Assembly (NCBI RefSeq): GCF_000661955.1
Contig: NZ_CP007597.1
Span: forward strand, 3,917,728-3,981,727
Length of the DNA stretch: 64,000 nucleotides
Direction: 5' to 3'
Source of the DNA: Stenotrophomonas rhizophila
Lineage (GTDB): Bacteria > Pseudomonadota > Gammaproteobacteria > Xanthomonadales > Xanthomonadaceae
The translations under genes were made by a program, and so were the position numbers. The notes under the pieces were generated by a model that saw only the letters and a list, made by a program, of their open reading frames with translations, made no database searches and was not told where the DNA came from. Of the stretch, positions 6,481 to 17,524 are shown in pieces (position 1 is the first letter of the stretch; every line of letters begins with the position of its first letter).

Positions 6481-6548
6481 TTGCGTGGGTCCCTCCCCCC
6501 ACGCAATCCCAGACCCGACAGAACCCTCCCTCTGTCGGGTCTTTTTTT
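6481..6548 (+). terminator. Tandem hairpins, the second an intrinsic terminator, after the phasin gene
   Basis: Two consecutive stem-loops: TTGCGTGGG/CCCACGCAA (6481-6506, no T-run) and ACCCGACAGA/TCTGTCGGGT (6513-6540) followed by seven T residues. The second is a textbook Rho-independent terminator and separates the phasin unit from the Abi locus. Confidence 0.9.
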
Positions 6549-6641
6549 GGGCGCGGGGCATGGCCGCTAAAGCGCGCCTGAACCGGTGGCACCGCGCGCC
6601 GACATTTCATTACTGGCGTCACACTCCTGACGTGTCATTAC

Positions 6642-6670
6642 TTGCGGGTAATCCATGCGATGGCTAGACT
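6642..6670 (+). promoter_or_regulatory. Candidate sigma-70 promoter for a small RNA ahead of the Abi gene
   Basis: TTGCGG (6642-6647), a 17-bp spacer and TAGACT (6665-6670) match three and four positions of the -35 and -10 consensus at the ideal distance. Transcription would begin near 6677, just before the hairpin element. An 8-bp direct repeat TCATTACT (6607-6614 and 6635-6642) lies just upstream. Confidence 0.4.
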
Positions 6671-6676
6671 TGCCGT

Positions 6677-6740
6677 AACACACCCGCCACGCCTCTGACG
6701 CGATCTTTCGCGCCATGCTCAAATTGGCGGGTTTTTTTTT
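6677..6740 (+). ncRNA. Candidate structured RNA with intrinsic terminator upstream of the Abi_2 gene (abiF-RNA-like)
   Basis: A compact unit of about 64 nt lies between the candidate promoter and the Abi gene. The outer stem pairs CCCGCCA (6683-6689) with TGGCGGG (6725-6731), directly followed by nine T residues (6732-6740), so transcripts should end here, 26 bp before the Abi start. Inside sits a second hairpin, CGCGA (6699-6703)/TCGCG (6708-6712) with loop TCTT, extended by G-C and T-A pairs across one mismatch. The 12 nt between the two stems on the 3' side stay free and could pair elsewhere. A conserved RNA motif named abiF RNA has been reported upstream of Abi_2 genes; whether this one fits that model needs a covariance search. 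It has no tandem repeats, unlike ToxI-type antitoxins. Confidence 0.6.
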
Positions 6741-6760
6741 GCCGCTATCAGGGGGGCGGC
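6741..6760 (+). promoter_or_regulatory. Hairpin holding the ribosome binding site of the Abi gene
   Basis: GCCGC (6741-6745) pairs with GCGGC (6756-6760), leaving the loop TATCAGGGGG. The purine tract AGGGGG, 11 nt before the ATG at 6767, is the only plausible Shine-Dalgarno sequence, so this small stem could modulate translation. Confidence 0.35.
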
Positions 6761-6766
6761 GTCAGG

Positions 6767-7672
6767 ATGACTCGATACCTCAAGCAAGCGCTAACGTTTC
6801 AGGCGCAGCTGCAACAACTGCAGTCGCGCGGATTAGGCATAGCGGACCTCGACACCGCCAATCGCTACCTGCAGCGCGTCGGCTACTACAGGCTGATGGG
6901 CTATCTATACCTGCAACGCATGCCCGGTAGTGACCAATTCTTGCGTGGCGCAACCTTCGAGGAAGCCGTCTCCCTGTATGAATTCGATCGCGGCCTGCGA
7001 GATCTCGTGATGGAGGCTGTTGGTCATATCGAGGTAGCAACCCGCACGCTGCTCACCTATCACTTCTCCCATGCCTACGGGCCTTTCGGGCACCTGGATC
7101 CCAGGAACTTTTCCTTCTCCCCAGCAGACCACCGTACGTGGGTGGATGGGATCAGCAAGGAGATCTCACGTTCCAAGGAGACGTTCATTCGTCACTATCA
7201 GGACACGTACTCCACTCCGGCGTTCCCACTGGTTCCCATCTGGATGGCGACGGAGGTGATGTCGCTGGGATCCCTCTCGCGCTTCTACAAAGCGCTACGG
7301 GCGGTGGAGCAGAAGGTGATAGCACGCGATGTTGAGATGGCCGCACCGGTGCTGCAGAACTGGTTGCATGTCACGAGCGTGGCGCGCAACGTGGTTGCAC
7401 ACCACGGACGCTTGTGGAACAAGGAACTTGGCGTCAGCGCGGCACGTCCACGATCTGCCGGCTGGTCTGAGCCAGAAGCACCGTTCCCTCCGGGCCGGGT
7501 CTTCTTTCTTCTCCTGCTGCTTCGCCGCCTCCTGAAGCAGACCACGGCAGATGCTGTTCTTTGGCGTGACCGGGTGGACACCCACCTTCAGAAGGGGCTG
7601 ACCACTGATAGGCATATCAGCGGACTTGGCGCCACACACGCGTGGCAGACACACCGCCTCTGGAGATTGTGA
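6767..7672 (+). CDS. Abi_2 (AbiD/AbiF) family abortive-infection protein, HEPN-type
   Basis: Protein of 301 residues of the Abi_2 family, known for phage abortive infection in lactococci. The N terminus (KQALTFQAQLQQLQSRGL, then RVGYYRLMGYLY) and the middle (LYEFDRGLRDLVMEAVGHIEVATRT) are family signatures. Near residue 210 stands RNVVAHHGRLWN, the R-x4-H HEPN ribonuclease motif with the RLWN tail usual for Abi_2, so RNA cleavage on infection is likely. The C-terminal 75 residues are less conserved. GC content is visibly lower than in neighbours (two 60-base lines counted at 58% and 50%, against 78% for one in the adjacent kinase gene), suggesting acquisition by transfer. No integrase or repeat borders it. 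The terminator-ended RNA immediately upstream suggests RNA-based control. Confidence 0.85.
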   Translation: MTRYLKQALTFQAQLQQLQSRGLGIADLDTANRYLQRVGYYRLMGYLYLQRMPGSDQFLRGATFEEAVSLYEFDRGLRDLVMEAVGHIEVATRTLLTYHFSHAYGPFGHLDPRNFSFSPADHRTWVDGISKEISRSKETFIRHYQDTYSTPAFPLVPIWMATEVMSLGSLSRFYKALRAVEQKVIARDVEMAAPVLQNWLHVTSVARNVVAHHGRLWNKELGVSAARPRSAGWSEPEAPFPPGRVFFLLLLLRRLLKQTTADAVLWRDRVDTHLQKGLTTDRHISGLGATHAWQTHRLWRL

Positions 7673-7718
7673 GGGACCGTCGCAGCAGGTCCCGTTGGCC
7701 AGTTCCTCACACGGTGCG

Positions 7719-9188
7719 TCAGCGCACCGCCACCGGCAGCGTAAACACGAACAACGCGCCGTCGCGGCTGTCCATCAGGCGGATCTGCCGGTGATGCAGC
7801 TGCAGGATGCGATGCACGATCAACAGCCCCAGCCCGCCGCTGTCCGGGCGCGCACTGCCCAGCGCCGGCGGCGTACTGAACAATGACGCGCGGCGCTCGG
7901 GCGCGATGCCCGGGCCGGTGTCGGCGATGGCCACCTGCACCTCGCCGTCCTGCGCGCGCAGCACCACTTCGATGCGGCCGCCTTCGGGCGTGTGCCGGAT
8001 CGCGTTGTCCAGCAGGTTGGTCAGCACGCGCTCGATCAGCCCCAGGTCGGCCACGACCGCGGGCAGCCCCGGCGGAATGTCGGCGGTGAGCGTCTGCCGG
8101 CGTGCCTGCGCAGCCAGCTCGAACTTCTGGAACACGTCCTGGACCAGGTCGGGCAGCGAGAACGCCTGCAGATCCAGGCTGACCCCGCCGTGCTCCAGTC
8201 GTGCCAGTTCGAACAGCGCCTGTGCCAGCGCGCCCACCTTGCGGCTCTGCGCCAACGCGATGCCCAGGTAGCGCTGGCGTTCGTCGGCGCCCAGCGTGGC
8301 GTCCTTCAACGCCAGCGTTTCCAGGTAGCCATGCAGCGACGACAACGGCGTGCGCAGGTCATGGGAGATGTTGGCCACCAGCTCGCGCCGCTGCAGGTCC
8401 TGCTCGCGCAGCTGCTGCCACTGTTCGCCCAGGCGCTGGCCCATGTGCCCGAAGCTGTGCTGCAGGATCGCCAGCTCGTCGCGCTCACCGGCCCGCAGCG
8501 GGGTGGGTGGCAGCGGCGTGCCGACACCGGCGGCGTCCACGTCGAAAGCCTGGATGCGCCGGGTCAGCTGGCGCAGGGGGCGGGTCACCCAGCGGAACGC
8601 GACCACGCCGGCCAGCAGCCCGACCACCGCCACGATGGCCAGCGACCACAGCGTGGTGCGCAGGGTCGCATTGGCGGCGATGTTGGCCGCCAGCGCCTCG
8701 CGCTGCTCGCCCACCAGCACCACGTAGATGTAGCCGGCCTGGCGCCCCTGCACCCACAACGGCGCGGCATTGAACACCTTGCGGCCGGTCGCGCTGCGCG
8801 GGTCGTCGCCGAGGATAGGCAGGGGCTCGTCGTGCAACAGCGCCTGCACCGGGGCCAGGTCCACGCGGTCGCGCTTGAGGTGGCCGTCGGGCGCGTCGTG
8901 GCCGAGGATGCGGCCTTCGTCGTCCAGCAGATAGACCTCGACGCTGGGGTTGACCGCCATCAGCTTGCCGAACAGCGCGCGCACTTCGCCGCCGCGCATG
9001 CCGCGTGCGTCCATCAGTTCGCCGCTGCGTGCGATGTGCTCGGCCAGCCCGCGCGACAGCCGCTGCACGGTTTCCTGCTCGTGCATGGCGGTGCTGCGCA
9101 TCTGGATCCACAGCAGCGCGCCGCAGCAGGCCAGCAGCAGCGCGCAGAACACCACCGACAGGCGCTGGGACAAGGTCAGGCGGATCAT
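7719..9188 (-). CDS. Membrane sensor histidine kinase
   Basis: Two-component sensor of 489 residues. A first membrane helix (residues ~8-28, VVFCALLLACCGALLWI) and a second (~180-200, LWSLAIVAVVGLLAGVVAF) bracket a periplasmic domain of about 150 residues; a HAMP linker follows. The kinase core shows the phospho-acceptor in NISHDLRTPLSSL (~residue 275), N box NLLDNAIRHTP, G1 DTGPGIAP and G2 GGLGLLIVH. Its ATG overlaps the response regulator's TGA by 4 bp, so translation is coupled. The pair is transcribed away from the periplasmic methionine sulfoxide reductase operon; control of that operon is plausible by analogy with other redox two-component systems, but not shown. Confidence 0.92.
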   Translation of the reverse strand: MIRLTLSQRLSVVFCALLLACCGALLWIQMRSTAMHEQETVQRLSRGLAEHIARSGELMDARGMRGGEVRALFGKLMAVNPSVEVYLLDDEGRILGHDAPDGHLKRDRVDLAPVQALLHDEPLPILGDDPRSATGRKVFNAAPLWVQGRQAGYIYVVLVGEQREALAANIAANATLRTTLWSLAIVAVVGLLAGVVAFRWVTRPLRQLTRRIQAFDVDAAGVGTPLPPTPLRAGERDELAILQHSFGHMGQRLGEQWQQLREQDLQRRELVANISHDLRTPLSSLHGYLETLALKDATLGADERQRYLGIALAQSRKVGALAQALFELARLEHGGVSLDLQAFSLPDLVQDVFQKFELAAQARRQTLTADIPPGLPAVVADLGLIERVLTNLLDNAIRHTPEGGRIEVVLRAQDGEVQVAIADTGPGIAPERRASLFSTPPALGSARPDSGGLGLLIVHRILQLHHRQIRLMDSRDGALFVFTLPVAVR

Positions 9189-17029: not shown

Positions 17030-17189
17030 GCCGCTGCCTGCGCGGTGGATGGAGCGGAACGGTGCTGCAACCTCGAAGGGGTCATGGGCATCACATCGTG
17101 GAACGAGGGGCATTCTAACCGCTCGCTCCGTGCCACCCCGCCGCGCCGGCTGCCGCAGCCAGGCCTTTGCTCTACACTGCGCGCACTTC

Positions 17190-17395
17190 CAGGTGACCTG
17201 CGGCGCATGCCGGCAGGTTGAAACGGGAAGCCGGTGACGCAGCAGACCCTTGCCTGCCACTCCGGCGCTGCCCCCGCAACGGTAAGCGTGGAAACACCCG
17301 GCATTACGCCACTGTGCTTGCGCATGGGAAGGCGCCGGGTGCGATGGCCCTGGCCATCGGCCCGCAAGCCCGGAGACCGGCCTGGAAGACGACTG
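17190..17395 (+). promoter_or_regulatory. Cobalamin riboswitch
   Basis: The leader of btuB holds the conserved parts of an AdoCbl riboswitch in order: GAAACGGGAAGCCGGTGACG (17219-17238), the B12 box region CGCTGCCCCCGCAACGGTAA (~17267-17286), GCCACTG (~17308), GGGAAGG (~17327) and the closing AAGCCCGGAGACC (~17366-17378). With cobalamin bound, expression of the downstream receptor should be shut off. Boundaries are approximate by about 10 nt. It starts about 160 bp from the divergent CobC-like gene. Confidence 0.92.
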
Positions 17396-17524
17396 GTTGC
17401 GATGCGGCGGGCATGGCGGCGGCAAGCGGCGCCGTGCGCGTGTCCGCCCACCGTCGATCCATCCCTGCAGCGCGATCATCCCCACCCCTTGCCGCGCGGG
17501 CGTGCGCGGTGCATGGAGTCATCG

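What the first reader, a model, noticed from the sequence alone, without database searches (positions are those of the whole stretch)
6642..7672. Abi_2 defence gene preceded by its own promoter-structured RNA-terminator unit
A promoter-like pair (TTGCGG-17-TAGACT), a nested two-stem RNA of about 64 nt ending in nine T residues, and then an Abi_2 gene with the HEPN motif RNVVAH follow within 125 bp. The terminator stands directly before the toxin-like gene, as in RNA-antitoxin (type III-like) systems where read-through gives the protein and termination gives an excess of RNA. A conserved motif called abiF RNA is known upstream of Abi_2 genes, so this may be its xanthomonad form or a new variant; the RNA has no tandem repeats, so it is not ToxIN-like. 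Low GC of the gene suggests recent transfer as a defence cassette. This is my best candidate for a little-described system.
Basis: partly seen in the sequence, partly recalled or inferred. Interest (0 to 1): 0.8.

Follow-up and report, generated by a model that had tools for sequence, protein, structure and literature searches.

The report
AbiF toxin with its RNA antitoxin
This bacterial gene and the small hairpin RNA in front of it look like a known kind of anti-phage toxin-antitoxin pair (AbiF with abiF RNA), and following it up showed that many viral sequences carry the same kind of RNA alone, perhaps to disarm such toxins.

Summary
A promoter-like pair, a structured ~64-nt RNA ending in U9 and an Abi_2 gene with an intact HEPN motif lie within 125 bp. 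The RNA matches Rfam abiF (RF03085) over its full length, but at 29.2 bits against a cut-off of 37: it has a longer apical hairpin and one broken P2 pair. Of 115 homologous loci, 95 have such an RNA directly upstream, with compensatory changes. The protein matches PbAbiF, whose structure is solved (8vz6). Published work shows AbiF is a toxin held by this RNA. So this is a new member of a known type III-like toxin-antitoxin system, present or absent as a 1.2-kb cassette. The surprise lies outside the window: of 79 viral contigs with a confirmed abiF RNA, 75 show no Abi_2 gene, and isolated phages such as Acj61 and PZL-Ah8 carry one. The outer stems pair even where the search did not fix them. 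I read these as RNA decoys against AbiF, like pseudo-ToxI; that function is inferred and untested.

The parts
6642..6670 (+). promoter-like pair TTGCGG-17-TAGACT
   Evidence: read; TTG...TANNNT at the same place in 9 of 9 relatives printed; -10-like word of 5-6 of 6 letters just upstream of the leader in 28 of 88 homologues against 2 of 88 for the same test 30 nt further up; not listed by the strict scan
6677..6740 (+). abiF RNA (predicted antitoxin): leader AACA, stems, U9
   Evidence: Rfam RF03085 at 6683-6732, 29.2 bits, E 0.0077, gathering 37; R1 63.3 bits, but the window (as L005) is in that model's training set; fold z -3.0
6677..6680 (+). AACA 5' leader, inferred start of the transcript; outside the Rfam model
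   Evidence: AAYA at the start of the RNA in 88 of 95 homologous loci; only about half of the viral RNAs have it (32 of 61)
6682..6689 (+). P1 5' arm, pairs with 6725-6732
   Evidence: fold; compensatory changes in homologues
6691..6718 (+). P2 (6691-6692/6717-6718, with C6690.U6719 unpaired) and apical P3 (6696-6697/6714-6715, 6699-6703/6708-6712)
   Evidence: fold; P2 in the Rfam alignment; folds of close relatives
6719..6724 (+). 3' bulge UCAAAU, the same six letters as the Rfam consensus
   Evidence: alignment; a single-stranded bulge of PbAbiFr is the reported inhibitory element (PMC12737573); that it corresponds to these bases is my inference
6725..6740 (+). P1 3' arm plus nine T: abiF stem and intrinsic terminator in one
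6767..7672 (+). abiF (Abi_2) gene, 301 aa, HEPN RNVVAH at 207-212
   Evidence: PF07751 4e-54; PADLOC AbiD 1.2e-65; PDB 8vz6 1.7e-38; R207, N208, H212 invariant in 42 sequences; AlphaFold2 pLDDT 96.1
6553..7732 (.). variable cassette: promoter, RNA and gene
   Evidence: congeners G302 and G303 have 13 bp where the window has 1178 bp

Best explanation
The locus is a stand-alone type III-like toxin-antitoxin cassette of the AbiF family. One promoter makes a transcript that starts at AACA. Most transcription stops in the U-run right after the RNA, giving an excess of a ~64-nt abiF RNA; read-through gives the AbiF mRNA. AbiF is a dimeric HEPN ribonuclease. The RNA binds it, and its 3' bulge blocks the active site. 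When phage infection or loss of the cassette upsets the balance, free AbiF cuts RNA and stops growth. Shown here by sequence: anatomy, family membership, covariation, cassette boundaries. Taken from published relatives: toxicity, RNA binding, termination and read-through, dimer. Inferred: transcript start, phage trigger and defence at this locus.
For: Rfam abiF match, with a close relative over the cut-off. abiF RNA upstream of 95 of 115 homologous loci; 9 of 11 pairs with changes on both sides, 0 of 500 shuffles as high. Intact HEPN and a sequence match to PbAbiF 8vz6 with R207/H212 aligned to R210/H215. C. difficile AbiF is toxic and is neutralised by its abiF RNA in cis and trans; its terminator limits read-through (PMC12373285). 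PbAbiF-RNA complex (PMC12737573). Empty sites in congeners.
Against: No expression, toxicity or phage data for this locus. The Rfam score is under the gathering cut-off and one P2 pair is a C.U mismatch here. The 95 of 115 count comes from loci chosen by likeness to this protein; in the genus, 9 of 17 Abi_2 matches over 150 bits have an R1 match upstream. Some Abi_2 genes without the RNA follow an hsdS gene, so the RNA is not universal in the family. With partners slid by one column, 4 pairs and 17 cells still show changes on both sides, against 9 and 28. The strict scan lists no promoter. The structure library search could not be run.
Confidence: 0.9

Rival explanations
1. The RNA is only a transcription attenuator for the gene (a leader with a terminator) and does not bind the protein.
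For: The stem runs straight into U9, so termination alone would lower expression; in C. difficile the terminator does so (PMC12373285).
Against: Core, leader and bulge are conserved beyond what a terminator needs; a relative's RNA acts in trans by binding the toxin; several Bacteroidota loci have a separate terminator-like hairpin downstream of the abiF stem (by eye).
Confidence: 0.05
2. The protein uses the RNA as a guide, in the manner of Cas13.
For: AbiF is described as the ancestor of Cas13 (PMC12737573; PMC12373285).
Against: No spacer-like variable tract is seen: the RNA is structured and its core is conserved; a review says AbiF lacks RNA-targeting specificity (PMC12948488, passage).
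Confidence: 0.02
3. The cassette is a decaying passenger without function.
For: Remnants occur in congeners: G354 keeps a 3' piece of the gene, G308 the RNA and the first codons.
Against: Here the reading frame, HEPN motif, promoter-like pair, outer stem and U-run are intact.
Confidence: 0.03

Closest known systems
AbiF-RCd22 of Clostridioides difficile phi027 (PMC12373285; abstract, passages, section 6 and discussion read)
   Same: Abi_2 HEPN protein, abiF RNA upstream under one promoter, terminator before the gene
   Different: RCd22 has two abiF motifs and a separate terminator hairpin after them; here one motif whose outer stem is itself followed by U9; chromosomal cassette, not a lysis module
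PbAbiF-AbiFr (PDB 8VZ6; known to me through passages of PMC12373285 and PMC12737573; primary paper not seen)
   Same: one RNA per protein; HEPN R/H residues aligned
   Different: here 20 nt stand in the apical part where the Rfam model has 7; PbAbiFr itself was not compared
ToxIN, CptNI, TenpNI type III systems (PMC12373285 discussion)
   Same: RNA antitoxin, terminator, toxin ribonuclease in that order
   Different: no tandem repeats here; the protein is Abi_2
pseudo-ToxI of phage PhiTE (PMC3475682, abstract and section list seen) and RNA anti-CRISPRs (PMC10651486, start of the abstract and one reference-list passage seen)
   Same: a phage carries a lone copy of the RNA part of a host defence system
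   Different: for the viral RNAs found here the lone RNA is abiF; decoy function not shown
abiF sRNA of lytic cyanophage S-CREM1 (PMC9964418, passages read)
   Same: an abiF RNA in a lytic phage
   Different: reported as one Rfam hit; the passages I saw give no antitoxin or counter-defence reading of it

Membership tests
Rfam RF03085 abiF RNA | score over the gathering cut-off (37 bits) | tested here: not met
   29.2 bits, E 0.0077, same score in the whole-genome search; relative L006 41.0 bits, over the cut-off
Rfam RF03085 abiF RNA | P1, P2, conserved core and 3' bulge | tested here: met
   model positions 1-37 aligned, letters near consensus; one P2 pair broken
Rfam RF03085 abiF RNA | conserved pairing among homologues | tested here: met
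   A2, 66 distinct rows: 9 of 11 pairs with changes on both sides, covariation score 0.141 against 0.048 shuffled; the alignment is fitted to the structure and so leans towards it
AbiF / Abi_2 (PF07751) | domain over the curated cut-off | tested here: met
   184.2 bits, cut-off 25.6
AbiF / Abi_2 (PF07751) | intact HEPN R-N-x3-H | tested here: met
   R207, N208, H212 invariant in 42 sequences
AbiF / Abi_2 (PF07751) | toxic ribonuclease | not testable with these tools
   toxicity shown for relatives only
type III toxin-antitoxin | RNA gene, terminator, toxin gene under one promoter | tested here: met
   order read; promoter by position and conservation only, not by the strict scan
type III toxin-antitoxin | direct RNA-protein neutralisation | not testable with these tools
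   shown for RCd22-AbiF
type III toxin-antitoxin | antitoxin RNA made of repeats, named a key feature of known type III systems (PMC12373285) | tested here: not met
   one motif only; so I call it type III-like
ToxIN family | ToxN-like toxin | tested here: not met
   the only Pfam family found is Abi_2

The most novel reading that the evidence does not exclude
Phages of many kinds carry solitary abiF RNAs as RNA decoys that bind and silence host AbiF toxins of the sort found in this window: a widespread RNA-based anti-abortive-infection strategy, parallel to pseudo-ToxI and RNA anti-CRISPRs. In this reading the window's cassette is one side of an arms race fought over a ~40-nt RNA shape.
Probability: 0.5. 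Interest if true: 0.85.

Novelty: new member of a known kind. Interest (0 to 1): 0.5.

Why it matters
The cassette itself adds a compact gammaproteobacterial form in which the antitoxin stem and the terminator are one. The wider result may matter more. If phages carry lone abiF RNAs to disarm AbiF, an RNA family listed in Rfam as a plain sRNA becomes a marker of counter-defence in viral genomes. Cas13 is thought to derive from AbiF, so such a decoy would also bear on how HEPN defence and its inhibitors evolved together. It could be tested soon: the B. subtilis phage SBSphiJ1 carries the core with pairing flanks, and close relatives hold the same region.

Tried and rejected
RNAalifold on the plain MAFFT alignment A1 predicted no pairs: in 10 of 34 rows 7 or fewer of the 11 pairs form, as the 3' arm is out of register, so I gave model R1 its structure by hand. 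A cis-regulatory role for the phage RNAs was considered and set aside, because the genes beside them differ between the annotated named phages. Two of the 11 named-phage places fetched, Vibrio vB_VnaS-L3 and Synechococcus SynMITS9220M01, look like plain terminators and are not counted. A plasmid search matched only the kinase end of the query, in 7 Burkholderia records. Viral scans with P0029 and with the second Abi_2 gave no relative. BLAST of the window's own RNA against named phages gave only 14 weak places, E about 8. The tRNA-neighbour result (7 of 14 loci with a tRNA, random mean 1.42) is a lead only: the 350-nt limit was chosen after seeing the table and some loci are related. Structure comparison with the PDB failed four times on a full queue.

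Full report
What is there. At 6642-7672 (+) the window has a promoter-like pair (6642-6647 and 6665-6670), a hairpin RNA (6677-6740) ending in nine T, and a 301-aa ORF (6767-7672). The stretch 6675-6742 folds at -22.5 kcal/mol against -14.2, sd 2.75, for 200 shuffles; z -3.0, one shuffle as good. The ORF is Pfam Abi_2 (4e-54) and PADLOC AbiD (1.2e-65); NCBIfam names nothing. G+C is 59.4% in the gene and 68.2% in the window; 3 of 631 windows of that size are as low.

Which RNA. An Rfam scan of the whole window at curated cut-offs lists only a cobalamin riboswitch. With a relaxed threshold on 6500-7800, abiF RNA RF03085 matches 6683-6732 over its full length at 29.2 bits (cut-off 37, E 0.0077). 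The alignment has 20 nt where the model has 7 (a longer apical hairpin) and one inner-stem pair is broken (C.U); the rest is near consensus. In the relative L006 that position is A-U and the score is 41.0, over the cut-off. Of the 20 loci scanned, Rfam recovers abiF at its cut-off in 3 (L006, L114, L115).

Homologues. Searches with the protein gave matches in 27 of 297 genomes of the family at E <= 1e-20, the best 80 of 121 loci in GTDB genomes and 6 loci in viral contigs. I aligned 34 RNAs picked by eye from these, the window's included (A1), and built model R1 with a structure given by hand. R1 was run on 100 and 17 sources. One search judged 115 loci, leaving out the window itself (L005) and the second Abi_2 of its genome (L003, L033): 95 have an R1 match on the coding strand within 300 nt of the start (median 33 nt from the end of the match), 2 have too little upstream DNA, 18 have none. 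Two further matches lay elsewhere. Three loci (L032, L038, L079) have two motifs. By eye, L108 and perhaps L050, L055 and L111 among the 18 also have abiF-like hairpins. The loci were chosen by likeness to this protein. In the genus at large, 9 of 17 Abi_2 matches over 150 bits have an R1 match upstream (the weakest, G163, at 34 bits).

Covariation. On A2 (86 rows, 66 distinct) 9 of 11 pairs have changes on both sides, 28 such cells, covariation 0.141 against 0.048, sd 0.007, shuffled; 0 of 500 shuffles reach the observed value on any of the five measures. Sliding partners by 1-3 columns drops pairing from 87% to 31-48%; at +1 there are still 4 such pairs and 17 cells. The alignment was fitted to the structure, so it leans that way. 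The innermost P1 pair is the least kept (37 of 63 cells unpaired).

5' leader and promoter. AAYA stands at the start of the RNA in 88 of 95 loci, and a -10-like word of 5-6 of 6 letters sits just upstream in 28 of 88 against 2 of 88 for the same test 30 nt further up. I infer that AACA is the 5' end of the transcript. The Rfam match does not include it.

Protein. The PDB sequence match is 8vz6 (1.7e-38) with R207/H212 on R210/H215, the PbAbiF residues whose double alanine variant is reported inactive (PMC12373285, discussion). R207, N208, H212 are invariant in 42 sequences. AlphaFold2 gives pLDDT 96.1, pTM 0.91. The fold search could not be run.

Mechanism from relatives. AbiF of C. difficile is toxic in C. 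difficile and E. coli; RCd22, with two abiF motifs, neutralises it in cis and trans by direct binding; the terminator limits read-through (PMC12373285; abstract, passages, section 6 and discussion). A review describes PbAbiF-AbiFr and an inhibitory bulge (PMC12737573, passages). The 2017 paper that, as I recall, defined abiF RNA is not held, and the primary PbAbiF paper was not seen; I know both by recall and through these papers.

Mobility. Flank searches in 91 genomes of the genus, the window's own among them, show that the cassette is missing at this site from close relatives. Of 42 genomes I entered from the tables, 41 have both flanks on one contig; 9 of these have less than 100 bp between them, and G302 and G303 just 13 bp where the window has 1178. 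The other 32 have 142 bp to 5.1 kb there, so the site is a variable spot. G354 keeps a 3' piece of the gene at this site (38 aa, 74% identical). The genus is Stenotrophomonas by inference: G267, same genus, matches the S. pavanii contig of L036 in length and coordinates.

RNA without a gene in cellular genomes. At E <= 1e-5 R1 finds 11 RNAs in 91 genomes of the genus and 15 in 297 of the family, 24 distinct (stricter filters, so weak ones are lost). By coordinates 20 stand next to an Abi_2 match and 4 are in genomes with no Abi_2 match: G308 (behind a glmS-like gene, with what look like the first codons of a lost gene), G359, G301 and G230. The G230 copy lies near a Q-like antitermination gene, a dGTP diphosphohydrolase-like gene and a VRR-NUC gene, so in a prophage-like stretch.

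RNA without a gene in viruses. That led to a scan of viral contigs with a pattern fixing the 5' part and the P1 3' arm. R1 confirms 79 of 80. PF07751 over the whole records finds Abi_2 in the same 4 records where a local profile had found it and in 0 of the other 75. Those 75 have a median length of 17.8 kb and 26 are 35 kb or more; none is given as complete, so absence is from what is held. In these RNAs the inner pair, whose 3' side the pattern did not fix, is C-G in 46, A-U in 16 and unpaired in 2 of 64 distinct rows; 16 cells with changes on both sides against 4.6 shuffled, 0 of 500. The count of such pairs (1) and of pair types does not exceed the shuffles, since the pattern fixed the other pairs. 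Of 61 distinct solitary RNAs 32 have the AAYA leader and 55 a T-rich tail, so the leader is less regular than in the gene-linked RNAs. Rfam at its own cut-off finds abiF in 10 of 10 of these viral loci given to it, and not in L208 (G230).

P1-blind test. A P1 stem of 6 bp or more is possible in 47 of 55 and 44 of 70, against means of 19% and 14% (maxima 31.5% and 23%) in 200 reshuffles. There are 31 and 43 distinct 5' arms. Leaving out CCGCC arms it is 33 of 40 and 38 of 59 against 14% and 17% (maxima 31% and 27%). So 8 and 26 flanks show no such stem under these rules. A profile made from the homologues finds no Abi_2 in those 55 and 70 loci; it finds the 4 known ones. I infer selection on the structure.

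Named phages. BLAST with three viral RNAs (and 78 with a fourth) listed 35, 5, 5 and 1 records; I fetched 11 places. Rfam at its cut-off finds abiF RNA in Acinetobacter phage Acj61 (58.0 bits), Aeromonas phage PZL-Ah8 (50.1), the environmental genome ctMEh928 (40.0) and Rhizobium phage RHEph21 (38.0): 4 of the 8 given to it. By eye the core with pairing flanks is also in phiNIT1, SNW-1, DuncansLeg and AsC4_1, where R1 gives 12.6 or 11.7 bits for SNW-1 and DuncansLeg and no match at that core for phiNIT1 and AsC4_1, so these rest on my reading. A 241-nt stretch around the phiNIT1 RNA matches 39 Bacillus phage records, all over at least 80% of it; I read 6. Between the three Nitunavirus and three Grisebachstrassevirus members the P1 arms change from CCUAC/GUAGG to CUCAC/GUGAG, two compensated pairs, with the leader and most of the core kept; the predicted folds of the former are weak (-4.9 to -8.4 kcal/mol). 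tblastn of the window protein finds Abi_2 in 78 phage records, and by their organism names none is an Acinetobacter, Aeromonas, Rhizobium, Bacillus, Sulfurimonas or Mycobacterium phage. Genes next to the RNA differ: capsid assembly, homing endonuclease, tRNA genes.

What the viral RNAs may do. The RNA antitoxin works in trans in the C. difficile system. A lone copy made during infection could bind AbiF; the core of viral L272 and of the gene-linked bacterial L114 differ by one letter in 26. pseudo-ToxI is the precedent (PMC3475682, abstract). Against: no binding data; the viral records are mostly fragments; a phage partner that is not of Abi_2 type is not excluded; no host AbiF was matched to a given phage. 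In print I saw abiF RNA in cyanophage S-CREM1 and, per that paper, three phage entries in Rfam, without a decoy reading in the passages seen. The listings of searches (cut at 15 of 29 papers) showed no paper that names such a decoy, within this open-licence library; I saw listings and passages, not whole texts.

Noticed in passing
viral contigs L213-L292, L344-L409, L443-L517; named phage loci L333, L334, L335, L337, L340: abiF RNAs without an Abi_2 gene in viral contigs and in named phages (see full report).
   Followed up: yes
own genome C1:3230467-3231615 (-), L033: A second, longer Abi_2 protein (383 aa) is preceded by a different hairpin-terminator (leader AACAGA, stem GCCAAAUC/GGUUUGGC, U8), with the same stem in G319 and G353. 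Not found by Rfam at its cut-off nor by R1 (as L003).
   Followed up: partly
L186, L190, L191, L192, L194, L195, L196: Abi_2 genes right after an hsdS-like gene (C-terminal FSGQL by script in 7; Methylase_S by Pfam in 4 of 4 tested). Five of the seven were searched with R1 under other ids (L021-L023, L025, L027) and have no match: perhaps a second lifestyle of the family inside type I restriction operons.
   Followed up: partly
window 6553-7732 and the same site in congeners: Variable spot between a short gene's terminator and a sensor kinase gene; 13 bp to about 5 kb in the genomes compared. That the left-hand gene is phasin-like is my reading, not tested.
   Followed up: partly
L123 (G354); L151 (G308): Remnants: a 3' piece of the abi gene at the same site, and an intact-looking RNA with only first codons left behind a glmS-like gene.
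   Followed up: partly
L229, L230, L243, L246, L271, L276, L292: Viral abiF RNAs lie within 350 nt of a tRNA gene in 7 of the 14 loci that have one; random mean 1.42.
   Followed up: partly
own genome C1:107652-108098 (-), L004: A third, weak Abi_2 match (25 bits; 32.2 with its neighbours in the frame) without an R1 match.
   Followed up: no
window 17174-17399 (+): Cobalamin riboswitch, 110.5 bits.
   Followed up: no
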